DNA of 64,000 nt, taken from Microbacterium sp. 1S1. Lineage in GTDB: Bacteria; Actinomycetota; Actinomycetes; Actinomycetales; Microbacteriaceae. Below, piece after piece: positions 14,083 through 57,736 of the stretch. Under the pieces are notes generated by a model, which saw only the letters and a program-made list of their open reading frames with translations, had not been told where the DNA came from and ran no database searches. Numbering within the stretch: the stretch's first letter is position 1; each line of letters starts with the position of its first letter. The position numbers were made by a program, and so were the translations under genes. The DNA is taken from NCBI RefSeq assembly GCF_008271365.1, contig NZ_CP043430.1:1054001-1118000 (forward strand). Direction: 5' to 3'.

Positions 14083-15057
14083 ATGACCGCGCCGTTCATC
14101 CTCGTCACCGACTGTGACCTCCCCGGAACCGTCATCGAAGACACCCTCCGCGCCGCCGGCCTCCGCGCGGAGCGGGCCGCCTCCGGAAGCCCGGATGACA
14201 TCGCGGCCGCAGGGGCCGACGCCGAGGCGCTGGTCGTGCAGTGGGCGCGCATCGACGGCGACCTCATGGACCGGCTCCCGAACCTCCGCATCATCAGCCG
14301 TGTCGGCATCGGCTACGACATGATCGACGTCGAGGCCGCCACCGCCCGCGGCATCGCCGTCGCGAACACGCCGAGCTACTGCATCGAGGAGGTCGCCGCG
14401 CACACCGTCGCGATGATCATGACGCAGGCCCGCGGCCTCTCGGCCTACGACCGTGCCGTGCGTGACGGCGTCTGGAAGGCCGTCGACGCCCGGCCACTCG
14501 CCGTGCGCCCGTCCACCACGACCGTGTCGGTCCTCGGCTTCGGGCGCATCGGCTCGATCGTCGCCCGCGGGTGTCGGGCGCTCGGATTCCGTGTGCTGGT
14601 CGCCGACCCGTATGCCTCCGACGACGCCGTGCGCGACGCGGGCTGCGAGCCCGTCGACATCCCGTCGGCGATCGCCCGCGCCGACATCCTCACGCTGCAC
14701 GTGCCGCTGACGGACGAGACCCGCCACCTCCTCGACGCCGAGGCGCTCGCGACGATGAAACGCGGCGCCGTGGTCGTGAACACCTGCCGTGGACCGCTCA
14801 TCGACGAGGACGCGCTGGCCGCGGCCCTCCGCGAGGGGCGGCTCTCCGGTGCCGCCCTCGACGTCTTCGCGGAGGAACCGCTCTCCGCGGCGTCCCCGCT
14901 GCGGGCGCTGGACCAGGTGCTCCTCACGCCGCACGCCGCCTGGTACTCGCCGGAGGCTCTGGCGGACTTGCCCGTGCACGCCGCCGAGAACGTGATCCGC
15001 TCGCTCGCCGGCGAGCCCGTGCCCCTCGTCAACCCGACCCCCGCCGCCGCGCGCTGA
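14083..15057 (+). CDS. D-2-hydroxyacid dehydrogenase, CtBP-like
   Basis: A 324-residue dehydrogenase of the D-isomer family. The substrate domain carries ISRVGIGYD near residue 78. The Rossmann motif VLGFGRIGSIVARG is near 150, the catalytic Arg in NTCRGPLID near 235, the Glu in FAEEPL near 266 and the His in LTPHAAWYS near 286. These are the Arg-Glu-His triad residues. It reduces a 2-keto acid or oxidises a D-2-hydroxy acid with NAD. It is followed 10 bp later by the fumarylacetoacetate-hydrolase-family gene, so it probably acts on a product or shunt metabolite of the sugar-acid pathway. Confidence 0.88.
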   Translation: MTAPFILVTDCDLPGTVIEDTLRAAGLRAERAASGSPDDIAAAGADAEALVVQWARIDGDLMDRLPNLRIISRVGIGYDMIDVEAATARGIAVANTPSYCIEEVAAHTVAMIMTQARGLSAYDRAVRDGVWKAVDARPLAVRPSTTTVSVLGFGRIGSIVARGCRALGFRVLVADPYASDDAVRDAGCEPVDIPSAIARADILTLHVPLTDETRHLLDAEALATMKRGAVVVNTCRGPLIDEDALAAALREGRLSGAALDVFAEEPLSAASPLRALDQVLLTPHAAWYSPEALADLPVHAAENVIRSLAGEPVPLVNPTPAAAR

Positions 15058-15067
15058 GAGGACACCC

Positions 15068-15925
15068 ATGGAACTGCTGCGACTCGGCGCGATCGGCCGC
15101 GAGCGTCCCTACGTCCGCGACGACCAGGGCGTGGTGCGTGATCTCGGGTCCGTGACCCGCGACATCGACGGCGCCTTCCTCGCCGCGGACGGCATCGCCC
15201 GGGTCCGCGCGGCGCTCGCGGACGGCACTCTCCCGAAGGTGGAGACCGCGGGACTGCGCGTCGGTGCCCCCGTGGCTCGGCCGACCGCGGTGATCTGCAT
15301 CGGACAGAACTATGCGGCGCATGCCGCGGAGTCCGGGTCCGAGCCGCCTGCGCACCCCGTGGTGTTCTTCAAGCACCCGAACACGGTGGTGGGCCCGGAT
15401 GACGTCGTGCTCCTCCCGCCCGGGGCCGAGAAAGTGGACTGGGAGGTCGAGCTCGCGGTCGTCATCGGCCGCACGGCGCGGTACCTGCCCTCCGTGGAGG
15501 CTGCGCGCGACGTGATCGCCGGCTACACGATCTCGAACGACGTGTCCGAGCGGGCGTATCAGCTCGAGGTCTCCGGCGGACAGTGGTCGAAGGGGAAGTG
15601 CTCCGAGACGTTCAACCCCCTCGGTCCGGCCCTGGTGCCCGCGGACGAGGTGGACCCCCAGGCGCTTCGGCTGCGCTCTTTCGTGAACGGCGAGCCGCGG
15701 CAGGACTCCTCCACCGCCGACATGATCTTCCCGGTACTGCGCCTCGTCCACGAGCTCAGTCACTACCTCGTGCTCGAACCCGGTGACATCATCAACACCG
15801 GCACCCCGCAGGGCGTCGCGCTGTCCGGACGCTTCCCCTACCTCCAGGACGGCGACGAGATGACCATCGAGATCGAGGGGCTCGGGCGTCAGCACCAGCG
15901 GACGGAGCGGGTCCGTCTCGGGTGA
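15068..15925 (+). CDS. Fumarylacetoacetate hydrolase family protein (diketo-deoxy acid hydrolase-like)
   Basis: A 285-residue protein. The C-terminal FAH domain begins at the motif ICIGQNYAAHAAE near residue 76. Metal ligands are in WEVELAVVIG near 126 and SNDVSERAYQ near 157, and INTGTPQGVA is near 240. Sequence and length resemble the 2,4-diketo-3-deoxy-L-fuconate hydrolase group, which splits the diketo acid into pyruvate and a small hydroxy acid. With SDRs, an enolase-superfamily dehydratase and a lactonase nearby, that role is plausible. Related enzymes are often misnamed ureidoglycolate lyase. Confidence 0.85.
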   Translation: MELLRLGAIGRERPYVRDDQGVVRDLGSVTRDIDGAFLAADGIARVRAALADGTLPKVETAGLRVGAPVARPTAVICIGQNYAAHAAESGSEPPAHPVVFFKHPNTVVGPDDVVLLPPGAEKVDWEVELAVVIGRTARYLPSVEAARDVIAGYTISNDVSERAYQLEVSGGQWSKGKCSETFNPLGPALVPADEVDPQALRLRSFVNGEPRQDSSTADMIFPVLRLVHELSHYLVLEPGDIINTGTPQGVALSGRFPYLQDGDEMTIEIEGLGRQHQRTERVRLG

Positions 15926-15997
15926 GGCCTGTGCCCGGGGCACGGTTCCTTTCGCTGAGTGCAACCGTGTCCCGGGTAGAGGTCTTTCCTGGACTCC

Positions 15998-16171
15998 GCG
16001 GGGTCAGGCGTTCGCGCGGGCTCAGGCGGGTGGAGGGACAGGGTGCCTGTTGTCGCGCGAGTGCCTGTCGCGACGGGCGCCCGCGGGGTCAGGCATTCAC
16101 GCGGGGTCAGGCGTTCGCGCGGGCTCAGGCGGGTGGAGGGACAGGGGGCCTGTTGTCGCGCGAGTGCCTGT
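15998..16171. repeat. 71-bp direct duplication built on an 18-bp motif
   Basis: The segment 15998-16068 recurs at 16101-16171 with one visible difference (GGGTGCC against GGGGGCC). Both copies begin with GTCAGGCGTTCGCGCGGG, and further partial copies of that 18-bp unit lie between them (for example near 16086 and 16104). The block fills the gap between the convergent FAH-family and SMP-30 genes. The same unit forms a tandem array near 23.46 kb, so this is a dispersed intergenic repeat family. No coding function is apparent. Confidence 0.85.
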
Positions 16172-16184
16172 GTTCGCGCCCGGG

Positions 16185-17033
16185 TCAGCCGGCGAAGGGG
16201 AGCACCGGGAGACCGTGCACCCCGGGCCGCACGGCGAAGACGGACCCGGCGGCAGTGCCGTGATCGGACGGCAGACCCTGTGCGGAGGTCGTGATGAAGA
16301 GCGTGCCGAGGTCATCACCGCCGAACGTGCACGCGCTGACCTGAGGCACCGGCAGCACGATGTCCTCGCGGACCGCCCCGGACGCCTCGAAGCCCCGTAC
16401 GCGGCTCCCGCCCCACAGCGCGACCCAGACACTGCCGTCCGCGGCGACCGTGAGGCCGTCGGGCACGCCGTCGTCTTCGGGAATGTGCGCGAACACGCGG
16501 CGTCCGCGGAGGTCGCCCTCGGCCACGTCGAACACGTCGATCCGGCCGGTGTCGGTGTCGACGTAGTAGACGCGGCGGCCGTCCGGCGAGTAGCTCACGC
16601 CGTTGGACGAGGTCACGCGGGGGAGCACCGTGGTCACGTCCAGGGCGGCGTCGATGCGGAGCACGGTCCCTGCACCCGCGGTGGAGTCCGTGGACATCGA
16701 TCCCGCGAGGAGCCGTCCCCGCGGGTCGCAGCAGCCGTCGTTCATGCGCACCGCGCCGTCGTCGAGCAGCGTCGCGACGGGTCGGGCCTCCGCATCGGGG
16801 CCGTCGGCGAGGTACAGGGTGCGCGCTCCCACCGCCACGAAGCCCCCGGACGTCCGCGGACGGAAGAACGCGAGGTACTCGTCGTCGATGTGCTGGCGGA
16901 CGATCTCGTCGCCGCGGAGGGTGAGCAGGTCGCCCACGTCGCCGTCGACCCAGCGCAGTCCGCCCCACCCGGGCCACCAGATCGGGGCCTCGGCGTGCAC
17001 GGCGACGGGGCCGGTGATGTTCTCGGGGGTCAT
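16185..17033 (-). CDS. SMP-30/gluconolactonase family protein
   Basis: A 282-residue beta-propeller. The start region has AEAPIWWPGWGGLRWVDGD, giving the first metal-ligand Glu near residue 14. RMNDGCCDPRGRLLAGSM near 93 provides the Asn-Asp pair, SSNGVSYSPDGRRVYYVDT near 141 the second Asn, and PDGLTVAADGSVWVALW near 193 the last Asp. These are the calcium or zinc ligands of SMP-30 lactonases, which open aldonolactones. In this locus it would hydrolyse the lactone made by a sugar dehydrogenase. It overlaps the upstream coiled-coil protein gene by 4 bp. Confidence 0.88.
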   Translation of the reverse strand: MTPENITGPVAVHAEAPIWWPGWGGLRWVDGDVGDLLTLRGDEIVRQHIDDEYLAFFRPRTSGGFVAVGARTLYLADGPDAEARPVATLLDDGAVRMNDGCCDPRGRLLAGSMSTDSTAGAGTVLRIDAALDVTTVLPRVTSSNGVSYSPDGRRVYYVDTDTGRIDVFDVAEGDLRGRRVFAHIPEDDGVPDGLTVAADGSVWVALWGGSRVRGFEASGAVREDIVLPVPQVSACTFGGDDLGTLFITTSAQGLPSDHGTAAGSVFAVRPGVHGLPVLPFAG

Positions 17034-17848
17034 GTGCCCTCCGTCGTCCGCCGCGGGTCGGTCACGGGCAGCGGCTCCGGAACGGCCTCGGCATGATCCG
17101 TCGCTGCGGCCGCGGACGGAAGCTCCTTCGCGACCTGCTTCTCGAGCACGGTCACGGCCTCGTCGGAGAGCAGGATGAGGCCGTCGAGCTCCTCGCGCAC
17201 CCGCTTGTATGCGATGTTCCGCTCGGACTGCGTCGCCGACTCGTCCACGGCGACCTTGAGGAGCTGCTGCGCGCGGTCGAGGCGCTTGCGCTCGGCCTCG
17301 GTGAACGTCGAGTCACGCAGCCGACGTGCGTCCTTCTCCGCGATCTCGAACGCGACCGCGTAGTCGCCGACGGCCTGCAGGTACTCCGCGATCTGCTGCT
17401 CCGAGAGCTTCGCGTCGGCGGAAGGCGGACGCAGCGCGTCCGCGGTCTTCTTCGCGCGGAGGAAGGCGGCCGTCAGCGGCTGGCGGCCGTCGCTCATCGC
17501 GGGGAAGGCGATCAGCTTGGCGACGTCGAGCTCGTAGTCCAGCCACCGCGCGGTGATCTCGTCGTGCTCGGCGAACAGGCGGGCGAGCAGGTCGTCGGGG
17601 GTCACCGACGCGGTCGTGTCGACGACCGTCGGACCCTGGCGCTTCGCCTGCCGTCCGGCCGTGCGCGCCTCGATCTCGGCCGTCTTGAGCTGAGCCTTCA
17701 TACGCAGCGTCTCCAGCCGGCGCTCGTGCCGACGCTTGGAACTGCGCTCCCAGGCCTTGGCGGCGCCGCCGGCCATTCCCATGATCGGGAAGACGAGCCA
17801 CCAGTAGTCACCCGCGAAGTCCCAGAAGCCCCGGATGAACTCGTCCAT
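17030..17848 (-). CDS. Membrane-anchored coiled-coil protein of unknown function
   Basis: A 272-residue protein not recognised as a named family. One hydrophobic helix near residues 15-31 is followed by a strongly basic, helical stretch (SSKRRHERRLETLRMKAQLK) and then long amphipathic helices to about residue 240, with an alanine- and proline-rich tail. It looks like a single-pass protein with a cytoplasmic coiled coil. Its stop overlaps the SMP-30 start by 4 bp, but the content does not suggest sugar metabolism and the link may be only positional. Confidence 0.7.
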   Translation of the reverse strand: MDEFIRGFWDFAGDYWWLVFPIMGMAGGAAKAWERSSKRRHERRLETLRMKAQLKTAEIEARTAGRQAKRQGPTVVDTTASVTPDDLLARLFAEHDEITARWLDYELDVAKLIAFPAMSDGRQPLTAAFLRAKKTADALRPPSADAKLSEQQIAEYLQAVGDYAVAFEIAEKDARRLRDSTFTEAERKRLDRAQQLLKVAVDESATQSERNIAYKRVREELDGLILLSDEAVTVLEKQVAKELPSAAAATDHAEAVPEPLPVTDPRRTTEGT

Positions 17849-17913
17849 GATGGGTTCAGCCTACTGCGCACCGAGGGGCCGCCGGGGGACAGCATGAGAG
17901 GGAGGACGGGCGG

Positions 17914-18762
17914 ATGAAGAGCGTCGGCATCGTCGGCATCGAGAACAGCCACGCGACGGAGATCGTCCGCTTCCTGATCACCGGCGTCGCAGAGGTCCCT
18001 CTGCGGATCACGACCGTCGTCGCGGGGGAGCCGGAGCGCACGCGGGAACTGGTGGAGCTCGGGGGCATCGATCGGGTCGTCGACGAGGTGGCTGCGCTCC
18101 GGGGCGCGGTGGACGCGCTCATCGTGACCGCCCGCGACGGCGCCGACCACCGTGCCGTCGCCGTCCCTTTCCTCGAGGCCGGGGTGCCGGTGTGGGTGGA
18201 CAAGCCGCTCGCGGCGGATGTCGCCGATGCCGACGCGATCCTCGCTGCCGCGCAGCGAGGCGGAGCACCCGTCACCTCGTCGTCGACGCTCCGCTGGCTC
18301 CACGACACCGCCGAGCTGGCGGCGGAGGCGGGCCGCATCGGGGAGGTGCAGTCGGTCACCGTCACGGGGCCGGCCGATCCGGACAGTCCGCACAGCGGCA
18401 TCTTCTTCTACGGCATCCACGTCGCCGATCTCGCCCAGTGCCTGTGGCCCGGCGCTGCGGAGAGCGTCGACGTGGAGTTCCTGCCCGCGGGTGTGGTCGC
18501 CCGGTATCGCGTCGATGGCGTGCCGGTCACGCTCGAGTTCGTGCGTCCGGACGGTGACCGTCAGGTGCCGTTCCGTGCGGCGGTCGTCGGCCGTCACGGT
18601 ATCGCGAGCCGGGAGATCGCGATCGGGCCCGGGTACGTGCAGCCCGGCGTCCGCGCGTTCGCCCGGATGCTCGAGACCGGCGAGTTCCCCGTGCCCGCCG
18701 CCGAGATGCGTGCCTCGATCGCCGTACTCGACCAGGTCGCCGAGGCGCTCGGCCCCCGCTGA
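17914..18762 (+). CDS. Gfo/Idh/MocA family oxidoreductase
   Basis: A 282-residue protein. The N-terminal Rossmann region begins SVGIVGIENSHATEIVRF. The signature KPLA in WVDKPLAADVADAD near residue 95 carries the lysine used in this family, and a C-terminal alpha/beta domain completes it. Members oxidise a sugar or inositol hydroxyl with NAD(P). It is shorter than the usual 330-390 residues, and the cofactor loop GIENSHA differs from the common GxGxxG, so cofactor use is uncertain. It stands alone between the coiled-coil gene (divergent) and the phosphonate-type transporter. Confidence 0.8.
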   Translation: MKSVGIVGIENSHATEIVRFLITGVAEVPLRITTVVAGEPERTRELVELGGIDRVVDEVAALRGAVDALIVTARDGADHRAVAVPFLEAGVPVWVDKPLAADVADADAILAAAQRGGAPVTSSSTLRWLHDTAELAAEAGRIGEVQSVTVTGPADPDSPHSGIFFYGIHVADLAQCLWPGAAESVDVEFLPAGVVARYRVDGVPVTLEFVRPDGDRQVPFRAAVVGRHGIASREIAIGPGYVQPGVRAFARMLETGEFPVPAAEMRASIAVLDQVAEALGPR

Positions 18763-18852: not shown

Positions 18853-18978
18853 AGAGACACCATCCGTTCACGCAGCGTTCGGTTACGGGTACGGCGGTCT
18901 CGTAATTCCTCGTCACCTTCGGGAGTTGGAATACCGATGGTCTCGGAATCCCGAGGCATCACCTCCCGAAAGGTCATC

Positions 18979-19881
18979 ATGCGCCGCTTCACCCTGCCCG
19001 CCGTCGGCCTCCTGGGCGTCGCCGCCTTCGCGCTCACCGGGTGCCAGACCCCGACCGCCGATGCGGCCCCTGCCGACCCCGACGCTCCCCTCACGATCGC
19101 CACGATCCCCGTCGGCGAAGACCCCACGGCCGAGAACCCGATCGAGGTGTTCGCCGCGCTGCTGGAGGACGCGACGGGCCGTGAGGTCGAGATCACCGAC
19201 GTGCCCGACTACCTGAGCGTGGTCGAGGCCCTCCGCTCCGACCACGTCGACATCGGCATCATGAGCGGCTTCCCCTCCGCGCTCGCCGTGAACACGGGCG
19301 AGGTGGACGCACTGGTGGCCTTCGAGGGCGACGGCAAGCCGGTGTCCACCTGTGTCGTGCTCGCGGACTCGCCCGTGCAGACGGTCGAAGACCTCGCGGG
19401 GAAGACCGTCGCCTTCGCCGATCAGGCCTCCAGCTCGGGCTACTTCATGCCGGTCTTCATGCTCCACGAGGCCGGGCTGGAGCAGGGCGAGGACTACGAG
19501 GCCATCTTCGCGGGCGGCCACGAGGGCAGCTTCGCGGCCCTGGAGCAGGGGCAGGTGGATGCCGCGTGCACCGCCGTCATGCTCACCGAGCTCGGCGCAC
19601 CGATGTTCCCCTTCGCGGATGGCGAGTGGCGCGCGGTCGGCGAGAGCCCGGCCATGGACGTCGCGGGTGCCGTGCTCGGTCGCCCCTCGCTCGACGCCGA
19701 GACGCGCACGGTCATCCAGGACGGCATCGCCGCCGTGTTCACCCCGGAGAACGCCGAGAAGCTCGGAGCCTTCGGGGCGTTCGCCGCCGCTCCGCAGACG
19801 GTCGACCCCGAGGACAGCGCGTTCGCGTCGTTCGCCGAGATCGCGGCCGTCGCGGGTGTCGAGTTGAAGGACCTCCAGTGA
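18979..19881 (+). CDS. phnD: Phosphonate-type ABC transporter substrate-binding lipoprotein PhnD
   Basis: A 300-residue lipoprotein. The signal ends in the lipobox LTGC near residue 19-22, so the cysteine anchors it to the membrane. The mature part is the PhnD/PtxB type, starting LTIATIPVGEDP and including VEALRSDHVDIGIMSGFPSA near residue 85 and ASSSGYFMPVFML near 152, which bind the phosph(on)ate-like group in this family. The ATG at 18979 was chosen over an upstream in-frame start because the lipoprotein signal begins there. It is first of five overlapping genes. Phosphonate, phosphite or a small phosphoester are all possible ligands. Confidence 0.9.
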   Translation: MRRFTLPAVGLLGVAAFALTGCQTPTADAAPADPDAPLTIATIPVGEDPTAENPIEVFAALLEDATGREVEITDVPDYLSVVEALRSDHVDIGIMSGFPSALAVNTGEVDALVAFEGDGKPVSTCVVLADSPVQTVEDLAGKTVAFADQASSSGYFMPVFMLHEAGLEQGEDYEAIFAGGHEGSFAALEQGQVDAACTAVMLTELGAPMFPFADGEWRAVGESPAMDVAGAVLGRPSLDAETRTVIQDGIAAVFTPENAEKLGAFGAFAAAPQTVDPEDSAFASFAEIAAVAGVELKDLQ

Positions 19882-20720
19882 CGGGCATGAGCGTCGCCGC
19901 CGTGGCTGCGCGGCACCAGGATGACGGGCGCACGCCCACGGCAGAGGTGCACCAGGCGCTGCCGCTCGTCACCGTCCGCGGCCTGCGCGTCGCCTACGAC
20001 TCCACGACGGTGCTGGACGGCGTCGACCTCGACCTCTTCCCCGGGGAGATGGTCGCCCTCCTGGGGGCCTCCGGATCGGGCAAGTCCACGCTGATGCGGA
20101 GCCTCACCGGTTTCGCGCCCATCGCGGCCGGGTCCGCGCGGGTCGCCGGGCACGACGTCACGAACCTCGGGCGAGGGGAGCTGCGGACGCTGCGCTCCGA
20201 GGTGGGGCAGGTGTTCCAGCAGTTCAACCTCATCCCGCGCCTCAGCGTCCTCACGAACGTGCTGACCGGGGCGCTGCACGGCGCCGGGCCCGCCAACCTC
20301 GTCGGCGGCTTCACGCATGCCCACCGGCGCCGGGCCCTCGACCTCCTCGACCGCGTCGGCATCGCACATAAGGCGACGGCACCCGCACGGTCGCTGTCCG
20401 GCGGGCAGCAGCAGCGGGTGGCGATCGCCCGCGCGCTCATGCAGCGGCCGAAACTGATCCTCGCCGATGAGCCGGTCGCCTCGCTCGACCCGAAGCTCGC
20501 CGACTCCGTGCTCGGGCTGCTCCGCGAGATCGCGGTGCAGGACGGGATCCCTGTGCTCGTGAGCCTGCACGTGTTGCCGCTCGCCCTCGCGCACAGCGAC
20601 CGCATCGTCGGTCTGCGGCACGGGGAGATGCTCGTCTCCGGCGTCACATCACAGCTGGACGTGGCCGCACTGGAGGACCTGTACGACGACGAGGAGCACC
20701 GCGATGACGACGACCGTTGA
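19878..20720 (+). CDS. phnC: Phosphonate-type ABC transporter ATPase PhnC
   Basis: A 280-residue ABC ATPase. Walker A GASGSGKST is near residue 67, the Q-loop in VGQVFQQFNLIPRL near 115, the signature LSGGQQQRVAIARAL near 175, Walker B LILADEPVASLDP near 196 and the switch histidine in VSLHVLPLA near 232. It powers import through PhnE. Translation can start at GTG 19878, overlapping the phnD stop, or at ATG 19887. No better Shine-Dalgarno separates them. It overlaps phnE by 17 bp. Confidence 0.92.
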   Translation: MTGMSVAAVAARHQDDGRTPTAEVHQALPLVTVRGLRVAYDSTTVLDGVDLDLFPGEMVALLGASGSGKSTLMRSLTGFAPIAAGSARVAGHDVTNLGRGELRTLRSEVGQVFQQFNLIPRLSVLTNVLTGALHGAGPANLVGGFTHAHRRRALDLLDRVGIAHKATAPARSLSGGQQQRVAIARALMQRPKLILADEPVASLDPKLADSVLGLLREIAVQDGIPVLVSLHVLPLALAHSDRIVGLRHGEMLVSGVTSQLDVAALEDLYDDEEHRDDDDR

Positions 20721-21543
20721 GCGCCAAGAGCGGGCCGTGCGCCCCCAGCTCGACCCGGCGGAGCGCGCCCGGCTCGAGAGCGCCTTCCGTGTCCCCCGCG
20801 CCCGCTTCCTCCTCGGCCTCCCGGTCGCCGCGCTGCTGCTGTTCTGGTCGTTCGCCGGAGCCGGGTTCGACTTCGTGAAGCTCGGCGAGGGTGCCGTCAA
20901 CATGGGGGAGTTCCTGTCCCGGTTGTTCCCGCCCGACTTCTCGAAGATCGGCACCATCCTCGCGCTGCTGCTGGAGACGTTCCAGATGGCCGTCGTCGGC
21001 ACCGTCCTCGGCGCGGTGCTGTCCCTGATCGTCGCGTTCGGGGCGACGTCGACCCTCGCGCCGCGGTGGCTGTACTACCCGACGCGCTGGATCATGAACA
21101 TCATCCGCTCCGTGCCCGACCTCGTGTTCGCGCTCATGTTCGTCTCGGCGGTGGGACTCGGACCGTTCGCCGGGATCCTCGCCATGACGCTCGGCTCCAT
21201 CGGGTCGATCGGCAAGATCTTCGCGGAGGCCATGGAACAGGTCGACCGCGGTCCCGTCGTCGCGATGGAGGCGGTCGGCGCCTCGAAGCGTCAGGTGATC
21301 CAGTACGCCGTGCTCCCCCAGGCCGCACCGCTGCTCACCTCGTACACGCTGCTGCTGTTCGAGGGGAACGTCCGCGGCGCGACGATCCTCGGTCTCGTCG
21401 GCGCCGGCGGCATCGGGCTGGAGCTGACGACCGCCATGCGCATGTACGACTACGGCCACCTCAGCGCCATCATCCTCTGCATCATCGTGCTCGTCACGCT
21501 GATCGACCAGGGCAGTGCCCTCATCCGAAGGAGAATCACATGA
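20704..21543 (+). CDS. phnE: Phosphonate-type ABC transporter permease PhnE
   Basis: A 279-residue permease with about six membrane helices between residues 32 and 270. The coupling motif EAVGASKRQVIQYAVLPQA near residue 188 matches the EAA loop that contacts the ATPase. It is a single permease with no PhnE2 partner. It overlaps phnC by 17 bp and the phosphatase gene by 4 bp, so expression is tightly linked. Confidence 0.9.
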   Translation: MTTTVERQERAVRPQLDPAERARLESAFRVPRARFLLGLPVAALLLFWSFAGAGFDFVKLGEGAVNMGEFLSRLFPPDFSKIGTILALLLETFQMAVVGTVLGAVLSLIVAFGATSTLAPRWLYYPTRWIMNIIRSVPDLVFALMFVSAVGLGPFAGILAMTLGSIGSIGKIFAEAMEQVDRGPVVAMEAVGASKRQVIQYAVLPQAAPLLTSYTLLLFEGNVRGATILGLVGAGGIGLELTTAMRMYDYGHLSAIILCIIVLVTLIDQGSALIRRRIT

Positions 21544-22307
21544 CCATGATCGACACCGGTCTCATCCTCAGCGCGCCGGTCAACCTGCGCGACCTCGGTG
21601 GCATCGCCATCGACGGCGGGGTGCTCCGCGCGGGTCTGGCCATCCGCACCGACGACCTCGCCTACGTGACCGCGGAGGTCGCGGACGAACTGCTCGCCGG
21701 CGGGCTCACCGCCATCATCGACCTGCGCTCGCCGCTCGAGGTCGCGGTCACCGGCCGCGGTCCGCTCGGCGAGCACCCGGTCGCCTACCACCACCTGCCG
21801 CTCATCGCCGACGTCGGAGCGTCGATCGACCGCGATCACCCCGCGCTGACGCACGAGGCCATGGGGCTGATGTACCTCCGCATGGTGGAGGGGGCGGCGC
21901 CGCAGCTCGTGACGGCGCTCAACGTCATCGCGCACACGCCGGGGGCGACGGCCTTCCACTGTGCGGCGGGGCGCGACCGCACCGGCGTCCTCGCCGCGAT
22001 GCTGCTGCTCGCCCTGGGGGCTGCGGATGACGACATCGTGGACGACTATGCGCGTACCGGGGAGAACATGGTGGCGATCATGGCGCGCACGGCGCCGGTC
22101 ATGGGGGCGATGTGGAAGGCGCTCGGCTTCGACGTCGATGCGCGGGATGCCTCGTCCGCTCTGCTGGAGGGGTCGATGGACGTGTCGATGCGGAGCCTCC
22201 TCGATACGCTCCGGGCTCAGCACGGCGACCCGCTGACCCCGCTCCGCATGGCTGGTCTGTCCGACGCGACCATCGCCCGGCTGCGCGAGCGGGCGCTCGG
22301 CGCGTGA
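21540..22307 (+). CDS. Tyrosine-protein phosphatase-like enzyme in PhnDCE operon
   Basis: A 255-residue member of the bacterial tyrosine/dual-specificity phosphatase family (Y_phosphatase3 type). NLRDLGG near residue 17 is the family start. The catalytic loop HCAAGRDRTG gives the CX5R motif with Cys141 and Arg147, and IIDLRSPLEV near 60 holds the aspartate-containing loop. It overlaps phnE by 4 bp. In family terms it hydrolyses phosphoesters. Its place after an importer suggests it removes phosphate from an imported compound, replacing a C-P lyase, but this is inference. No signal peptide is visible, so it acts in the cytoplasm. Confidence 0.85.
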   Translation: MTMIDTGLILSAPVNLRDLGGIAIDGGVLRAGLAIRTDDLAYVTAEVADELLAGGLTAIIDLRSPLEVAVTGRGPLGEHPVAYHHLPLIADVGASIDRDHPALTHEAMGLMYLRMVEGAAPQLVTALNVIAHTPGATAFHCAAGRDRTGVLAAMLLLALGAADDDIVDDYARTGENMVAIMARTAPVMGAMWKALGFDVDARDASSALLEGSMDVSMRSLLDTLRAQHGDPLTPLRMAGLSDATIARLRERALGA

Positions 22308-22924
22308 CGGTCGCGACACGGTCGCCGGAGGTGCGGCGTCGGCCCGGCCGTCCGCGTGACGAGGACATCGATGCGCAGATCGTCGCCGCCACGCTCGAGA
22401 TCATCGACGCGGGGGAAGACGTGACGGTCGCGCGGGTCGTCGCCCGGAGCGGCGTCAGCCGGGCGGCGCTGTATCGACGCTGGCCGACGCTGACCATGCT
22501 CATCGCGGCGGCCCTCGACGTGGGGCGGGAGGTCCCTCCGGAGTACCCGGCCGACGCCGATCTGCGCGAGATCCTCCTCACCGGCCTCGGGCTCGGGGCG
22601 GACGGCGTGGCTCCGTCCGCGCCCGGGTATTCCGAGGAGCGGTTCCGCCAGCGCATCCGTCTCGTCATGTCCGACCGGGCGCTGCAGAAGGCGTACTGGG
22701 AGTCGCACGTGTCCCGCCGTCGGGTCCCGTTGCAGAACGCTCTGCGGGCCGGAATCGTGCGCGGCGAGCTCCGGGCGGATCTCGACGTGGAGGCGTGCTT
22801 CGACGCGGTGGCCGGTGTCGCGTACTACCAGCTCGTCGTCCGCGGGGACCGGATCGACGACCCGGCCGTGGTGGCTCGCCTGCGCGCCGCCGTCGACGTG
22901 ATCTGGCGCGGCATGCTGTCCTGA
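22304..22924 (+). CDS. TetR/AcrR family regulator ending the PhnDCE operon
   Basis: A 206-residue regulator starting at GTG 22304, overlapping the phosphatase stop. The N-terminal helix-turn-helix reads VTVARVVARSGVSRAALYRR near residues 40-59, and the rest is a ligand-binding helical domain. As the last gene of the operon it probably autoregulates phnDCE. No clear operator was recognised upstream of phnD. Confidence 0.85.
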   Translation: MTVATRSPEVRRRPGRPRDEDIDAQIVAATLEIIDAGEDVTVARVVARSGVSRAALYRRWPTLTMLIAAALDVGREVPPEYPADADLREILLTGLGLGADGVAPSAPGYSEERFRQRIRLVMSDRALQKAYWESHVSRRRVPLQNALRAGIVRGELRADLDVEACFDAVAGVAYYQLVVRGDRIDDPAVVARLRAAVDVIWRGMLS

Positions 22925-51803: not shown

Positions 51804-52682
51804 TTAGTCGCGCCAGTCGATCCCGACGCCGGCGATCCGTCGCCCGGCCTCGTCGGCGGCGACCGGCTCTCCGACGTCCGCCCCGCGTTCGAGCGAGACG
51901 GCGGAATGCACGATGGTGTCGGCGTACACGTGCACGAGGTTGTAGCCCTGCGCGGCGTCCTGTCCGCGGGTCGCCCCGACGGGCTGCGCGAGGTCCTGAC
52001 CGTACGCGCTCGACGAGGCCACCGCGACGGGGATCCCGGCGAAGGTGCCGAACGACGGATGGTGCACGTGCCCGGACAGGATGCCCCGCGCGTCCGACCC
52101 CCGCAGCACCGCGGCGAGCGCGTCCTGATCCCGGAGCTCGACGGTCACGGCGAGGTCGAGCACCGTGGGCAGCGGCGGATGATGCAGGAGCAGCAGCGTG
52201 CCCTGTGGTGCCGCCGTCGCCAGCTCTCCCTCCAGCCAATCCAGCTGCGACGACGACACCTCCCCCCAATGCGCGCCGGGCACCGTCGAATCGACGACGA
52301 TGACGCGCATCCCCCCGAACCACCGCACCTCGACGATCGGCTCGGCACCCGCCCCCGCGAGTCCGAGCTCCGATCGCATGGCACGGCGGTCGTCATGGTT
52401 GCCGGCCGCCCACACGACCTCGCACCCCAGCGCCGCGGCGGCGGGCGCCACGAGCTGGCGCAGGCGCTCGTAGGCGGGGGCATCGCCCCGATCCGTCAGG
52501 TCTCCCGTGAACAGCAGCGCGTCGGGGCGGAGCCCTGAGGCGACGAGCCGGTCGAGCATCTCCGCGAGGTTCGCGTCGGCGTCGGCCCCGCTGCCGTACA
52601 GCGGCGACCGTTCACCCGGCAGGTGCGTGTCGGAGATGTGCACGAAGGTGTGCGACGGGCGGGGGTGTTCGGTGAAGATCAT
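51804..52682 (-). CDS. Metallophosphoesterase, CpdA-like cyclic/diester phosphodiesterase
   Basis: A 292-residue calcineurin-like hydrolase. The five metal-binding motifs are present: DTH near residue 18-20, GDLTD near 60, GNHDD near 94, HHP near 166 and GHVHH near 199. It lies last in the ABC-importer operon, after the LacI gene. That suggests it hydrolyses a phosphodiester or phosphomonoester brought in by the importer, although CpdA-type enzymes also act on cAMP. It has no signal peptide, so it is cytoplasmic. Confidence 0.85.
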   Translation of the reverse strand: MIFTEHPRPSHTFVHISDTHLPGERSPLYGSGADADANLAEMLDRLVASGLRPDALLFTGDLTDRGDAPAYERLRQLVAPAAAALGCEVVWAAGNHDDRRAMRSELGLAGAGAEPIVEVRWFGGMRVIVVDSTVPGAHWGEVSSSQLDWLEGELATAAPQGTLLLLHHPPLPTVLDLAVTVELRDQDALAAVLRGSDARGILSGHVHHPSFGTFAGIPVAVASSSAYGQDLAQPVGATRGQDAAQGYNLVHVYADTIVHSAVSLERGADVGEPVAADEAGRRIAGVGIDWRD

Positions 52683-52724
52683 GTCTCTTCCTGGTCGGCG
52701 GGCGGAGGCAGGTCGGGGCAGAGG

Positions 52725-53747
52725 TCAGACGGCGGAGGCCGTGGAACCGGGGACGAGGGTTCCGGTGAACGAGCGCCGCACGAGGGTCTCCGGCTCGTCG
52801 GCGGTGAGCAGCCGCTGCATGGTCTCGACGGCGGCTGCGGCCACCGCCTCCACGGGAATCCGCAGCGTGGTGAGCCCGAGCAGGTCGGCGCCCGGAAGGA
52901 TGCCGTCGCAGCCGGTCACGCTCACGTCGTCCGGCACGCGAAGGCCCGCCGCGCGGAGGGCGCGCATGACGGCGAGCTGTCGGTAGTCCGACGCGCACAT
53001 CACGGCGGTGGATCCGGCGCGCACGGCCGCGAGGGCTTCGTCGATGCCGTCGTCGGGGCGGGCGCCGGCTGAGATCATCGTGACGGCGACCCCGGCGCGG
53101 ATCAGCACCTCGCGCATCGCCAGGGCCCGCAGGTGCTCGGGATAGGACGCCTCAGGACTCCCGGCGAGCACGACCACCTTCCGGTGCCCGAGGGCGACCA
53201 CGTGCTCCGCGAGCAGACGTCCGTGGCCCTCGTCGTCGTAGTGGGCGGTGTGGATGCGGCCCGCCGACTCCACGCGCCCTGCGCGCAGGATCGGCACCTG
53301 GTCGGCGAACGGCTCGAGCTGCGCCGCCGAGATGCCGCCGGTGGCGACGATGAGTCCCGCGACGCGCATGCCGAGCAGCCGATGCAGCGCGCCCACCTGC
53401 TTGGCACCCTGCTCGTCGGCGCCGATGGTGACGGTCACGAGGTCGAGGCCGCGCTGATGCGCCTCCTCCTGCAGCCGGGAGAAGAGAAGGCCGTATGCGG
53501 GGTTGCTCGCATCGCGCAGCATGAGGCCGACGGTGCCGGTGCGTCCGGCGGCGAGTTCCGCGGCCATGGTGTTGCGCACGTATCCGAGTCGTTCGGCCGC
53601 TTCCAGGATGCGCTCCTGTGTCTCGGGCGCGAACCGACCCTCGCCCTTGAGAGCTCTGGTCGCCGTCGCCCTCGACACTCCGGCCGCGGCGGCGACGTCG
53701 CTGATCGTGACCCGCAGGGCGGGGGTCCCGGCATCGGCCCCACTCAT
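52725..53747 (-). CDS. LacI family transcriptional regulator
   Basis: A 340-residue regulator. The N-terminal helix-turn-helix VTISDVAAAAGVSRATATRAL near residues 12-32 and the hinge EAAERLGYVRNTMAAEL near 48 are LacI-typical. The periplasmic-binding-like effector domain follows to the end. Its ATG overlaps the permease stop by 4 bp, an unusual but clear coupling, so the regulator is co-translated with its targets. A palindrome before the binding-protein gene at 57763 is a candidate operator. Confidence 0.9.
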   Translation of the reverse strand: MSGADAGTPALRVTISDVAAAAGVSRATATRALKGEGRFAPETQERILEAAERLGYVRNTMAAELAAGRTGTVGLMLRDASNPAYGLLFSRLQEEAHQRGLDLVTVTIGADEQGAKQVGALHRLLGMRVAGLIVATGGISAAQLEPFADQVPILRAGRVESAGRIHTAHYDDEGHGRLLAEHVVALGHRKVVVLAGSPEASYPEHLRALAMREVLIRAGVAVTMISAGARPDDGIDEALAAVRAGSTAVMCASDYRQLAVMRALRAAGLRVPDDVSVTGCDGILPGADLLGLTTLRIPVEAVAAAAVETMQRLLTADEPETLVRRSFTGTLVPGSTASAV

Positions 53748-55603
53748 GCGCGCCGCTTCCGTCGGCGGGGCGCTCCGGCGCGTGAACCTCGTCCATACAC
53801 GAGATACATGGTGACACCCATGATGATCATGAGCAGCACGGTGTAGACGAACGTGATGGGCATCGCGTCGAGGTTGTTCTCCCCGCGGGTGCTCTCCTGG
53901 ATCGCGACACCGAGCGGCTTGTACAGGGGGTGGTAAAGGAAGATCGCCGCGTCGTAGTCATCGAGCAGGCTGTTGAAGTTGAGCGCCGTGATCGCGGCCG
54001 CCGTCGGCAGCACGAGCGGGACGAGCACACGCCGGAACGTCGTCAGCGAGCGCGCTCCGAGGATGCGGGAGGCGTCCTCCAGGGAGTCCGGCACGGAGGC
54101 GAAGCCCGCTTTCAGCAGCCGCAACGTGAACGGGATCTTCACGCAGATGTAGGCGACGAGAAGCAGGATCGGCGTCCCCGTGAGCACGATGTTCCCGACG
54201 AGCACCTGCGGCGCGTCGAACGCCATGACGAACGCGAGGGCGATCAGCACGATCGGGAGGATCCAGGGGATGTGCAGCACGTACTCGATGGCCGTGGTGA
54301 GGAGGTTGCGGTGCTTCTGCATCATCCGCGCCACGAACAGCAACCCGCCCACGACGATGACCGCGGCCAGGGCACTGTAGACGACACTCACGATGAACGG
54401 CCGAAGAGCCGCCGCGCTGGAGAACACGGTGACGTAGTTGTCGAGCGTGAAGCTGTCGAGGGTGATCGACCCGGCGAGGATGCTCCGCGCGTCGACAAAC
54501 GAGAAGATCACGATGAGCACGACCGGGATGAGGTAGATCACCCACAGCAGGTACGCCACGACGTGCACGACCGCGTTCGCGAAGGGGTTGCGGATCCGCT
54601 GCTTCTGGATCGGCGTCGCCACCTTCGCGACCGAGAAGTACACGCCGGACTTCTCGGCGCGGTTCATGATCGCGAGCAGGATGATCGTGGCGACACCGAG
54701 CACGATCGCCAGCAGTGCCGCGATGTCGCGCGTGATCGGGCTCCGCGACAGGTCGATGATGAGGGGCGCGACGGTCTGGAAGTCCGGGCCGCCGAGGACG
54801 AGCGGCGCGGTCAGGGCGCCGAGACCGATGAGGAACGTCAGCACCGTGACGGCGAACAGCATCGGCTTCATGACCGGCAGCACGATGCGGCGCAGGATCG
54901 TCCAGGTCGAGGCGCCCATGAGCTTCGCGGCCTCGATCGAGGCGTAGTCCACTTTGCCGAGCGACGACGACAGGAAGAGCATGTGGTTCGTCGTCGTGGC
55001 GAACGTCATCACGAACACGACCGCGAAGTACCCGGAGAACCAGTTGCGATCCATGTCCGGCCAGATGTTCACCATGAGGTTCGTGATGAAGCCGAACTTG
55101 CCGTAGATGAAGTTGTAGCCGGCGGCGAGCACGATGCCGCCGTAGATCAGGGTCGTGGCGTAGCCGAGCCAGAGGAGTTTCGCGCCGCGCACCTGGAAGT
55201 ACTGCGTCACCAGCACGATGAACACCCCGACGACGTTCACCGTCACGGACAGCGTGATCGCGAGGAGGAAGCTGTTGCCGAGAGTCTTCAGGGCCCGCTC
55301 GCTGCCGAGCAGCTTCTCGACGGCGCGGATGCTGAACTGCCCGTCGGGGAAGAACGTCGTGGCGAGCAGTTCCGCGTTCGGCAGCACGAGGAAGGCGGCG
55401 GCGAACCAGATCACCACGATGCCGGTCACCCACGCGAGCGGGGAACGGAGCATCGCCCGCACGCTGCCGGGTCGGCCGCGGCGGAGGCGGGGCTTCGTCG
55501 CGGTGCCCGTCTCGGCCGCCTCGGTGGTCAGGGCGCCGGGGGTGTCCGTCATCGCCGCGGACGGCGGCGGCGTCGGACGGGAGTCGTTCTGCGGAGCGTT
55601 CAT
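53744..55603 (-). CDS. ABC importer permease, two permease domains fused
   Basis: A 619-residue protein with two copies of the six-helix permease domain, about residues 55-310 and 345-600. Each half has an EAA-type loop (AAKLMGASTWTILRRIVLPV near 222 and ASRILGARSLTTFRRVLVPL near 520). The fused form is found in iron, thiamine, putrescine-like and 2-aminoethylphosphonate importers. One gene thus supplies the whole channel. It follows the ATPase by 1 bp and overlaps the LacI gene by 4 bp. Confidence 0.9.
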   Translation of the reverse strand: MNAPQNDSRPTPPPSAAMTDTPGALTTEAAETGTATKPRLRRGRPGSVRAMLRSPLAWVTGIVVIWFAAAFLVLPNAELLATTFFPDGQFSIRAVEKLLGSERALKTLGNSFLLAITLSVTVNVVGVFIVLVTQYFQVRGAKLLWLGYATTLIYGGIVLAAGYNFIYGKFGFITNLMVNIWPDMDRNWFSGYFAVVFVMTFATTTNHMLFLSSSLGKVDYASIEAAKLMGASTWTILRRIVLPVMKPMLFAVTVLTFLIGLGALTAPLVLGGPDFQTVAPLIIDLSRSPITRDIAALLAIVLGVATIILLAIMNRAEKSGVYFSVAKVATPIQKQRIRNPFANAVVHVVAYLLWVIYLIPVVLIVIFSFVDARSILAGSITLDSFTLDNYVTVFSSAAALRPFIVSVVYSALAAVIVVGGLLFVARMMQKHRNLLTTAIEYVLHIPWILPIVLIALAFVMAFDAPQVLVGNIVLTGTPILLLVAYICVKIPFTLRLLKAGFASVPDSLEDASRILGARSLTTFRRVLVPLVLPTAAAITALNFNSLLDDYDAAIFLYHPLYKPLGVAIQESTRGENNLDAMPITFVYTVLLMIIMGVTMYLVYGRGSRAGAPRRRKRRA

Positions 55604-55604
55604 G

Positions 55605-56624
55605 TCACGCCGCCGGGTACTGCAGGACCCACCGGGGGTCGACGTGGATGCGCACGTCGTCGCCGACGTCCCACCGGCGCGCGCTCGCCGCGGCCGGCAC
55701 GCTCACCCGGAGCGTCGCATCGGCCGCCGACACCGTATAGACGCTGTGGCTGCCGTGGTACGTGCGGCCGGCGACGGTGCCGTCGAGGGAGCCCGTTCCT
55801 CCGGTCGTGGCTTCGGCCGGCGAAGCCAGATGCAACTTCTCCGGACGGACGTAGCTCTCGGCCGTGGCGTCGAGGCCCGCGCCGATCGCGACGAGCTGGG
55901 CGGGGCTGAGCCGGTTGTTCTCGCCGATGAACCGGCAGACGAACGGCGTGGCGCTGCGGTCGTAGATCTCCTCCGGCGTGCCCACCTGCTGCAGGGTCCC
56001 GGCGTCGAGCACCGCAATGCGGTCGCTGAGGGTGAGTGCCTCCTCCTGGTCATGCGTGACGTACACGGTGGTCACACCGACCTCGTGCTGCAGCTCCTTG
56101 AGCTGCTCGCGCAGCTGCACGCGGAGCTTGGCGTCGAGGTTCGACAGCGGCTCGTCGAGCAGCAGGATGCTGGGGGTCAGGGCGAGCGCGCGGGCGATGG
56201 CGACGCGCTGCTGCTGCCCGCCGGACAGCTCCGCGACGTTCTTCTCGAGCTGCGACGCGGCGAGCCCGGTGCGGTCGGCGACCTCGTCTACGCGTCTCCG
56301 CTGCTCGGCCTTCGACACCTTCTGCACCGACAGGCCGAATGCGATGTTCTCCCGCACGTTCATGCTCGGGAACAGGGCGTAGTTCTGGAACACCATGCCC
56401 ACGCCGCGCTTCTCGCTCGGCACCCTGGTCACGTCGCGACCGGCGATGTGAATCCGGCCGCCGGTCGGCTCGATGAACCCCGCGAGCGTGCGCAGGGCGG
56501 TGGTCTTGCCGCATCCGGACGGACCCAGGAGGGTGAAGAACTCACCCTCCTGGATCTCCAGATCGAGGTGCGAGACCGCACGGTGGTCGCCGAACACGAC
56601 CTCGACGTCGTCGAAACGGATCAT
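55605..56624 (-). CDS. ABC importer ATPase, FbpC/PotA-like
   Basis: A 339-residue ATPase. Walker A GPSGCGKTT is near residue 36, the signature LSGGQQQRVAIARAL near 134, Walker B ILLLDEPLSNLD near 154 and the switch in YVTHDQEEAL near 188. A C-terminal TOBE-type regulatory domain covers about 240-339. Ligand classes for this type include iron, spermidine/putrescine and 2-aminoethylphosphonate. It lies between the binding protein and fused permease. Confidence 0.92.
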   Translation of the reverse strand: MIRFDDVEVVFGDHRAVSHLDLEIQEGEFFTLLGPSGCGKTTALRTLAGFIEPTGGRIHIAGRDVTRVPSEKRGVGMVFQNYALFPSMNVRENIAFGLSVQKVSKAEQRRRVDEVADRTGLAASQLEKNVAELSGGQQQRVAIARALALTPSILLLDEPLSNLDAKLRVQLREQLKELQHEVGVTTVYVTHDQEEALTLSDRIAVLDAGTLQQVGTPEEIYDRSATPFVCRFIGENNRLSPAQLVAIGAGLDATAESYVRPEKLHLASPAEATTGGTGSLDGTVAGRTYHGSHSVYTVSAADATLRVSVPAAASARRWDVGDDVRIHVDPRWVLQYPAA

Positions 56625-56659
56625 CGTCTTCTCTCTCTGCCGGTACGGGACTGCGCGGG

Positions 56660-57736
56660 TCAGCCGACGTACTTGAGCGTGACCTTCTCGACCCAGGCGC
56701 CGAGGTTCTCGCTCACGAAACCGAAGTCGATGTCCTGACGGTCGAGTGTGCCCATGAGCTCGACGACCTCGGGGTTGGCCTTCTCGACCGCGCCCTCGTT
56801 CACCGGCATGGCGTTGAACTCCGCCGCGAACTCGCCCTGCACCTCGGCGCTGCCGAACCAGTCGATGAACTCCTGTGCCTTCTCCTCGTTGTCCGTGCCG
56901 CTGATCTGCGCGATCTGCTCGGTCACATAGGGGACGCCGTACTCGGGCACGATCATGCCGGTGGTGGTGCCGTACTCCTCGTCGCGGGCCGCGATGCCGC
57001 TCGACGGGAGCACGCCGTAGTCGACCTCGTCGCGGGTGATGCGGGCGTAGAGGTCGGTGCCCTCCACGGCCGGGGAGCCGTTGGCGTAGTACGACTTCAC
57101 GAGCTCCCAGCCTTCGTCGCTCACGCCGAGGTCGCCGTCCTCGTCGAGGTGCCGGGTGAGGATGCTCGCGAGCACGAGCTGCGGGGTCGCCTGGCCGAGC
57201 GCGGGGTTGACCTCGTAGCGGCCCGCGAACTCCTCATCGGTGTACAGGTCGTCGGGGTCGGAGGGCGCATCGGTGATGCGGTTCTCGTCGTAGACCGTGA
57301 CGATGGCCTGCTCGACGAGCGGCCAGAACGCGCCGTCCTTCGGGTCGCCGGCGTCCGCGGGCACCTCGCCGCTCCAGCTCGGCTCGTAGGCCGTGATGGC
57401 CTCTTCCGTCTTGAGCTGCTCGAAGAACATGTTGTTCAGGCCGAAGACCACGTCGCCGACGGGGTTGTTCTTCTCCGCGATGATGCGGTTCGTCAGGTCG
57501 GCACCGCCGAGGCCCACGATCTCGATGTCGATGCCCGCCTCCGCCGCCTTCTCGGTGATCCATTCACCGCGACCGTCGCTGTTCGAGTTCGTGTAGACGA
57601 TGAGGGTGTCGCCGGAGCCGCCGTCGCTACCTTCGCCCGCGTCTCCGTCGCCGCTCGCGGTGCATCCGCTGAGCGCGATCGCCGCCGCGGCCGTCAATCC
57701 GATGAGCGCCCAGCGCCTCTGCTGCCTGTCGGCCAT
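56660..57736 (-). CDS. ABC importer substrate-binding lipoprotein
   Basis: A 358-residue lipoprotein with lipobox LSGC near residue 22-25. The mature domain follows the iron/AEP class of binding proteins: DTLIVYTNSNSDGRGEWITE near residue 43, NNPVGDVVFGLNNMFFEQL near 92 and GVLPSSGIAARDEEYG near 240. It captures the ligand and gives it to the fused permease. The neighbouring phosphodiesterase favours a phosphate- or phosphonate-containing ligand, which is inference. It is first in the operon. Confidence 0.88.
   Translation of the reverse strand: MADRQQRRWALIGLTAAAAIALSGCTASGDGDAGEGSDGGSGDTLIVYTNSNSDGRGEWITEKAAEAGIDIEIVGLGGADLTNRIIAEKNNPVGDVVFGLNNMFFEQLKTEEAITAYEPSWSGEVPADAGDPKDGAFWPLVEQAIVTVYDENRITDAPSDPDDLYTDEEFAGRYEVNPALGQATPQLVLASILTRHLDEDGDLGVSDEGWELVKSYYANGSPAVEGTDLYARITRDEVDYGVLPSSGIAARDEEYGTTTGMIVPEYGVPYVTEQIAQISGTDNEEKAQEFIDWFGSAEVQGEFAAEFNAMPVNEGAVEKANPEVVELMGTLDRQDIDFGFVSENLGAWVEKVTLKYVG

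What the first reader, a model, noticed from the sequence alone, without database searches (positions are those of the whole stretch)
18979..22924. Phosphonate-type importer fused to a phosphatase operon, with no C-P lyase
PhnD-PhnC-PhnE is joined by translational overlaps to a CX5R phosphatase and a TetR regulator. There are no C-P lyase or phosphite dehydrogenase genes here. The arrangement suggests uptake of an intact phosphoester that the phosphatase cleaves inside the cell. This would be a different use of the PhnD scaffold.
Basis: partly seen in the sequence, partly recalled or inferred. Interest (0 to 1): 0.7.

Follow-up and report, generated by a model that had tools for sequence, protein, structure and literature searches.

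The report
Organophosphate importer with its own phosphatase
A Microbacterium operon pairs a phosphonate-type ABC importer with a tightly linked phosphatase; the pairing recurs in many actinobacterial genera and carries a phosphate-starvation promoter site, so it most likely imports a small phosphate ester whole and removes the phosphate inside the cell.

Summary
In detail: phnD-phnC-phnE-phosphatase-TetR (18979-22924) is one overlapping gene run. The pair is conserved. In 119 genomes of the genus, 21 carry the close PhnD and the same 21 the close phosphatase (one cut by a contig end). Of 80 named loci fetched by phosphatase similarity, 78 have phnE directly upstream, overlapping by 4 bp in 73. 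A PHO-box repeat and a conserved promoter block precede phnD; the same pattern stands before two pstS genes of this genome. In a 59-row PhnD tree the phosphatase-linked PhnDs lie on one side of one branch; none of 20 mycobacterial PhnD loci has the phosphatase. Related phosphatases also sit inside other ABC-importer operons, there with a metallophosphoesterase. I support 'import a phosphate monoester intact, dephosphorylate it in the cytosol' (about 0.6). The ligand is unknown; the main rival is a plain phosphate importer, as shown for Mycobacterium smegmatis PhnDCE. A PhnD-scaffold phosphoester importer is no longer new in itself: GpxB, a glycerol-phosphate binder, was published in December 2025. 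I found no paper on this operon with its dedicated phosphatase in the open library searched. I rate it a new variant of a known kind.

The parts
18866..18880 (+). Candidate PHO box, GTTCACGCAGCGTTC (two 11-nt direct repeat units)
   Evidence: Pattern GTTCAYN5RTTC: 15 matches in the own genome against 0 for the reversed control; exact in 39 of 74 phnD upstream regions of named loci against 6 of 529 control regions
18897..18907 (+). Conserved promoter block GTCTCGTAATT (probably -10 region)
   Evidence: Exact in 55 of 74 phnD upstream regions against 0 of 529 controls; mostly 31 or 42 nt from the box start, i.e. in 11-nt register
18928..18952 (+). Candidate TetR operator, imperfect palindrome; weak
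   Evidence: Conserved block in close relatives; palindromes only modestly above shuffles over 102 loci
18979..19881 (+). phnD, lipoprotein substrate-binding protein of the phosphate/phosphite/phosphonate family
19878..20720 (+). phnC, ABC ATPase
   Evidence: PF00005; TIGR02315 257.5 bits, cut-off 266.1
20704..21543 (+). phnE, ABC permease
   Evidence: TIGR01097 281.5 bits, cut-off 216.7
21540..22307 (+). Y_phosphatase3 cysteine phosphatase, P-loop HCAAGRDRTG, no signal peptide evident by inspection
22304..22924 (+). TetR-family regulator
   Evidence: PF00440 and PF16859; follows the phosphatase directly in 71 of 80 named loci

Best explanation
The operon is a phosphate-scavenging system. Under phosphate starvation PhoP activates it from the PHO box (inferred from sequence). 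PhnD, a lipoprotein on the outer face, binds a small phosphate monoester by its phosphate end through the conserved SSS-His site (inferred). PhnE and PhnC import it intact. The cytosolic cysteine phosphatase cleaves it to phosphate plus an alcohol (inferred from family and linkage). TetR tunes the operon, perhaps by sensing the ester or its product (weak inference). Shown here: gene order, overlaps, conservation of the unit, the PHO-box pattern also before two pstS genes, the separation of phosphatase-linked PhnDs in the tree, and the changed phosphatase P-loop of this branch. The ester itself is not identified; the apparent loss of the acidic pair said to hold the amine of 2-aminoethylphosphonate argues for an uncharged or anionic tail.
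For: Co-occurrence in 119 genomes of the genus, own included: both present in 21 (one phosphatase cut by a contig end), both absent in 98, none discordant. Flanks differ while the four core genes stay together in 20 of 20 loci, TetR in 19 of 20. 11 of 11 loci outside the genus; a Rhodococcus plasmid typed as conjugative carries it too. 78 of 80 named loci, 4-bp overlap in 73 of 78. PHO box and promoter block. PhnD tree of 59 rows: the 31 phosphatase-linked rows lie on one side of a branch with support 99/98. Negative control: 0 of 20 mycobacterial PhnD loci carry the phosphatase. In plasmids the phosphatase family lies inside an ABC-importer operon in 12 of 13 annotated loci read, 10 of the 12 with a metallophosphoesterase or phosphodiesterase.
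Against: No binding, transport or enzyme data. Mycobacterium smegmatis PhnDCE is reported to import phosphate, not phosphonate or phosphite, under PhoP (PMC7866108, passages read), and that review suggests the same for Streptomyces phnCDE without C-P lyase. The pocket lacks, by alignment, the hinge tyrosine used by PtxB; the residue aligned with GpxB tail residue Arg223 is not conserved. The phosphatase family is not tied to importers everywhere: of 14 loci of the genus-wide paralogue, 13 are not in an importer run (11 have a carboxymuconolactone-decarboxylase-like gene next to it, as called), and two Blastococcus phosphatases have no phn genes nearby. 11 of the 15 genomic box matches are not at genes I recognise as phosphorus genes. 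On the other side of the tree one kind of partner enzyme is not confined to one PhnD clade.
Confidence: 0.6

Rival explanations
1. PhnDCE is a second high-affinity importer of inorganic phosphate, as in Mycobacterium smegmatis, and the phosphatase does an unrelated or housekeeping job in phosphate-starved cells.
For: Experimental precedent reported in PMC7866108 (passages); the PHO box fits it equally well.
Against: The genome already has two pstS genes with the box pattern (one scores just under its model's cut-off). The 20 mycobacterial loci of other PhnDs carry no such phosphatase, while it follows this PhnD clade in every case found from the PhnD side. A 4-bp translational overlap conserved across genera suggests a joint function.
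Confidence: 0.17
2. The imported compound is a phosphonate or other non-ester phosphorus compound, and the phosphatase acts on it or on a product made by an enzyme coded elsewhere.
For: The scaffold is the phosphonate family and the nearest solved structures by sequence are phosphite binders.
Against: No PhnJ in the genome; a separate PhnDCE with an FAD oxidase, a phosphonatase-like hydrolase and an alcohol dehydrogenase already exists in the genome (L052). The capping aromatic residue and hinge tyrosine of phosphite binders are missing by alignment. I know of no cysteine phosphatase that cleaves a C-P bond (recalled).
Confidence: 0.12
3. The phosphatase is a regulator that dephosphorylates protein components of the importer or the TetR protein.
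For: Best structural match is M. tuberculosis PtpB, described in print as having phosphoinositide and protein tyrosine phosphatase features (PMC3091653, passages).
Against: The landmark lysine of the PtpB-type P-loop is replaced by Arg or Gln in 84 of 94 distinct phosphatases next to phnE and kept in 18 of 18 not next to phnE; the wider family serves in importer operons of other transporter layouts together with a metallophosphoesterase.
Confidence: 0.06

Closest known systems
GpxB/GpxC/GpxD glycerol-phosphate importer (PhnT family; PDB 9lf9, 9lfb; PMC12718374)
   Same: PhnD-type binding protein and ABC importer taking up an intact phosphate monoester
   Different: Mostly marine Proteobacteria and a haloarchaeon; the word phosphatase does not occur in the paper's main text; the residue aligned with Arg223 is not conserved in ours; 21% identity over 261 structurally aligned residues
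Mycobacterium smegmatis PhnF-PhnDCE (PMC7866108, passages)
   Same: Actinobacterial phnDCE without C-P lyase, phosphate-starvation control
PhnDCE with TIGR03364 FAD oxidase and TIGR03351-like hydrolase (own genome, L052)
   Same: Related importer, PHO-box pattern match beside it, GntR regulator
   Different: Genes for aminophosphonate breakdown instead of the phosphatase (probably PbfC/PbfD-like oxidase, PMC10590968, passages; hydrolase 213.8 bits, just under the cut-off 218.9)
PtpB-type atypical lipid phosphatases, signature HCXXGKDR (PMC3091653, passages)
   Same: Fold and catalytic Cys, Asp, Arg
   Different: P-loop Lys replaced by Arg in the window protein; gene linked to importer genes
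PtxABC phosphite importers (PMC5700983, passages)
   Same: PhnD-fold binding protein, serine-rich helix start and His
   Different: Hinge and capping tyrosines missing by alignment; no dehydrogenase in the operon

Membership tests
PhnD equivalog (TIGR03431) | Score over the curated cut-off | tested here: not met
   99.7 bits against 261.1
Phosphate/phosphite/phosphonate binding subfamily (TIGR01098) | Score over the curated cut-off | tested here: met
   138.9 bits against 112.05
Phosphonate permease PhnE (TIGR01097) | Score over the curated cut-off | tested here: met
   281.5 bits against 216.7
Phosphonate ATPase PhnC (TIGR02315) | Score over the curated cut-off | tested here: not met
   257.5 bits against 266.1, a near miss
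C-P lyase phosphonate system | phnJ present in the genome | tested here: not met
   No PhnJ match, control rings in E. coli
GpxB glycerol-phosphate binder | Arg223 and Thr247 for the glycerol tail | tested here: inconclusive
   The profile alignment ends at 9lf9 residue 224 and places a non-conserved residue at Arg223; Thr247 lies beyond it
GpxB glycerol-phosphate binder | Binds glycerol-1- and glycerol-3-phosphate | not testable with these tools
   Needs a binding assay
PtxB phosphite binder | Capping tyrosine and hinge tyrosine | tested here: not met
   By sequence alignment ESPAMDVAGAVLGR and KPVSTC stand at these places; PVS[TS]C in 85 of 88 distinct PhnDs
PtxB/PhnD/GpxB phosphate-end site | Ser/Thr-rich helix start and His | tested here: met
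   SSSG in 87 of 88 distinct PhnDs; His181 invariant in 28 aligned rows
Y_phosphatase3 (PF13350) | Score over the gathering cut-off, CX5R motif | tested here: met
   147.8 against 22.2 bits; HCAAGRDRTG
PtpB-type atypical lipid phosphatase | Strict HCXXGKDR P-loop | tested here: not met
   Arg in place of Lys in the window protein
Pho regulon (actinobacterial type) | GTTCACC-like 11-nt direct repeats upstream | tested here: met
   18866-18880; motif as in PMC4415409 (passages). Binding by PhoP not tested
M. smegmatis PhnFDCE phosphate importer | Divergent GntR-type phnF | tested here: not met
   TetR downstream instead

The most novel reading that the evidence does not exclude
Y_phosphatase3 enzymes include an unrecognised class of nutrient phosphatases that travel with ABC importers of at least three layouts. 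With PhnDCE alone the cargo is a phosphomonoester; with Ugp-type or two-ATPase importers plus a metallophosphoesterase it is a phosphodiester cleaved in two steps. The virulence-associated PtpB branch would then be a relative of nutrient phosphatases. Within this class the TetR-type PhnDCE branch has changed the landmark P-loop lysine to Arg or Gln, which would mark a new, smaller or less charged substrate; the other importer-linked ones read here keep the lysine.
Probability: 0.4. Interest if true: 0.72.

Novelty: new variant of a known kind. Interest (0 to 1): 0.55.

Why it matters
A review of actinobacteria says that sugar phosphates and nucleotides are cut outside the cell and the phosphate then imported (PMC7866108, passages). 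A widespread operon that imports an ester whole would be a second route, hidden by the label 'phosphonate transporter'. It would also warn against counting phnDCE genes as phosphonate use in soil and metagenome surveys, and it gives a concrete gene set for ligand screening.

Tried and rejected
Phosphite oxidation through the dehydrogenase at 14083-15057: rejected, because it is not conserved near the operon and is paired with a FAH-family hydrolase. Membership of the upstream genes 14083-18762 in the system: rejected, each is seen in only 2 to 4 of the 20 same-genus stretches. TetR operator: a first impression of a strong palindrome did not hold; 8 of 8 arm pairs occur in 7 of 102 loci against 0.8% of shuffles, 7 or more in 36 of 102 against 18%, so it stays a candidate. 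'All Y_phosphatase3 are importer-linked': rejected. PtxD-like label for the dehydrogenase in L208 and L209 was mine from gene position; no curated model confirms it (L208 tested).

A first PhnD tree of 49 rows carried a wrong label: I had filed L210 under oxidase/hydrolase, but Pfam finds PhnG beside it, and PhnH in L211. The tree was rebuilt with 59 rows, all 20 mycobacterial loci and mended labels: the phosphatase side stays whole (99/98), but the five labels now need 5 changes, not the least possible 4; the C-P lyase label needs 2 changes and the oxidase/hydrolase label 3. The odds of the best explanation were not changed by this, since it touches only the other side of the tree. Rows were chosen by me, the root is the midpoint, and long branches are flagged.

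Limits of the samples: of the plasmid hits I read 14 of 91 records, taken from the 30 listed; one (H5) had no annotation. The 74 phnD rows count one locus (L168) twice. Of 21 mycobacterial matches listed I fetched 20. In the phylum sample of 396 genomes only three same-genus genomes have strong PhnD hits; two weak ones (5e-31) were not looked at. In one search counts included duplicates; one search repeats them on distinct sequences. A protein search with PhnD (561 proteins, 120 listed) gave names only and was not used further. Literature searches for the pairing found nothing on it: (open PMC library only). One search was a script that failed on a missing key and was run again.
Full report
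What is there. Five + strand genes, 18979-22924, run with short overlaps: phnD, phnC, phnE, a Y_phosphatase3 phosphatase and a TetR regulator. The window lies in a 3.40-Mb single-contig genome. I infer the genus Microbacterium, because same-genus contigs of the sample have the lengths of named Microbacterium records (1186031 bases, M. oxydans; 1537791 bases, M. algeriense).

Conservation. Searching 119 genomes of the genus (own included) with the phosphatase and with PhnD gives the same set: 21 genomes have a PhnD match at E below 1e-70 and the same 21 have the close phosphatase on the same contig (in G023 only its first 52 residues, at a contig end); the other 98 have neither close protein. 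A more distant phosphatase match, mostly 30 to 40% identical, exists in nearly all genomes (118 of 119 have some match). In 19 same-genus loci plus the window the order phnD-phnC-phnE-phosphatase holds in 20 of 20 and TetR follows in 19, while flanking genes change. Outside the genus, all 11 strong PhnD hits (E below 1e-60) of an order-wide sample of 297 genomes have the five genes. A scan of 84,980 species genomes with a phosphatase alignment returned 516 relatives; of the best 80, 78 have phnE directly upstream and 71 have TetR directly downstream; the phnE-phosphatase overlap is exactly 4 bp in 73 of 78. Genera include Isoptericola, Georgenia, Brevibacterium, Leucobacter, Rhodococcus, Dietzia, Cellulomonas, Agromyces and Arthrobacter. 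A Rhodococcus aetherivorans plasmid typed as conjugative carries the set, with phnD cut by the record start. The two exceptions are Blastococcus phosphatases without phn genes.

Promoter. Upstream of phnD stands GTTCACGCAGCGTTC (18866-18880), an 11-nt direct repeat like the Streptomyces PHO box GTTCACC (PMC4415409, passages). In the own genome the pattern GTTCAYN5RTTC occurs 15 times, against 0 for the reversed pattern. Two of the 15 stand before pstS genes, one before this phnD, one between the second phnD and its GntR gene; the other 11 are at genes that I do not recognise as phosphorus genes, some inside coding regions. Among named loci the pattern is exact in 39 of 74 phnD upstream regions against 6 of 529 other genes of the same loci, and a block GTCTCGTAATT is exact in 55 of 74 against 0 of 529, mostly 31 or 42 nt downstream of the box start, that is, in 11-nt register. 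This places the operon in the Pho regulon by inference.

Other PhnDs have other partners. Related PhnD loci carry an FAD oxidase TIGR03364 or a phosphonatase-like hydrolase TIGR03351 or both (L073-L079, own locus L052; L075 and L076 by inspection). Of 20 mycobacterial loci, 6 have PhnG or PhnH of the C-P lyase (Pfam), 2 a D-2-hydroxyacid dehydrogenase, and 12 a HAD hydrolase, oxidase or alcohol dehydrogenase or the same kind of PhnDCE without a recognised partner in view (by inspection; HAD confirmed by Pfam in 3); none has the phosphatase. In a tree of 59 PhnDs the 31 phosphatase-linked rows (28 with TetR, 3 with GntR) lie on one side of a branch with support 99/98. The other labels are clustered but not perfectly: all five need 5 changes, one above the minimum, against a mean of 26.4 for shuffled labels; the C-P lyase label needs 2 changes. 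A GntR-type variant, phnDCE-phosphatase, occurs in two order-level genomes and on a Rhodococcus koreensis plasmid.

The phosphatase family in other importers. On plasmids, 12 of 13 annotated loci read have the phosphatase inside an ABC-importer operon: two with phnDCE, seven with sugar-type (Ugp-like) permeases, three with two permeases and two ATPases, a layout like oligopeptide importers; the ten non-phn cases also have a metallophosphoesterase or phosphodiesterase. The thirteenth, H6, lies among CoA-metabolism genes. One reading is that a diester needs two enzymes and a monoester one. The genus-wide paralogue does not follow this: of 14 loci read, only L120 (the plasmid type) is in an importer run; 11 of the others have a carboxymuconolactone-decarboxylase-like gene next to them as called (one such gene confirmed by Pfam).

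What is known. GpxB, a PhnD-family binder of glycerol-1- and glycerol-3-phosphate, was published in December 2025 (PMC12718374); so uptake of a phosphoester by a PhnD-type importer is established in marine Proteobacteria. M. smegmatis PhnDCE is reported to import phosphate (PMC7866108, passages). I found no paper on the phnDCE-phosphatase operon in searches of the open PMC library; subscription papers are not covered.

Verdict. Best reading: a Pho-controlled importer of a phosphate monoester with its own cytosolic phosphatase, confidence 0.6. The ligand needs a binding assay.

Noticed in passing
51804-57736 (- strand): Another importer with a hydrolase: metallophosphoesterase, LacI regulator, long permease, ATPase with TOBE domain and solute-binding protein in one run (Pfam). 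Possibly a second organophosphate import system in the same window.
   Followed up: partly
L052 (own genome C1:302000-320000): Second phnDCE with HpnW-type FAD oxidase, phosphonatase-like hydrolase, HpnZ-type alcohol dehydrogenase and a divergent GntR gene; a PHO-box pattern match lies between phnD and GntR.
   Followed up: partly
L034 5757-6482, also L131 and L135: In Microbacterium barkeri and M. oryzae loci a second, 37-38% identical Y_phosphatase3 follows TetR in the same run; it keeps the P-loop Lys while the first one has Gln.
   Followed up: partly
L096 (Rhodococcus aetherivorans plasmid NZ_CP069307.1): The five-gene set on a plasmid typed as conjugative, near a MobF relaxase, suggesting horizontal spread.
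   Followed up: partly
Phosphatase P-loop, loci such as L034, L035, L061, L063-L069: The P-loop reads HCAAGQDRTG there but HCAAGRDRTG in the window's branch; the Gln/Arg split seems to follow the PhnD subclades and may mark different ligands.
   Followed up: no
Upstream of phnD in L034, L061, L127, L128, L131, L135, L203: Perfect palindromes such as GATATCGCCAGTCGCGATATC just downstream of the promoter block, candidate TetR operators.
   Followed up: partly
L110-L119, L121-L123: A Y_phosphatase3 paralogue found widely in the genus sample; 11 of these 13 loci have a carboxymuconolactone-decarboxylase-like gene next to it and 12 of 13 an ABC transporter run on the opposite strand that looks oligopeptide-type by inspection; role unknown.
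   Followed up: no
L099, L100, L103 (Sulfitobacter and Pseudosulfitobacter plasmids): The phosphatases of the two-ATPase importers have NCTAGKDRTG, with Asn in place of the usual His before the catalytic Cys.
   Followed up: no
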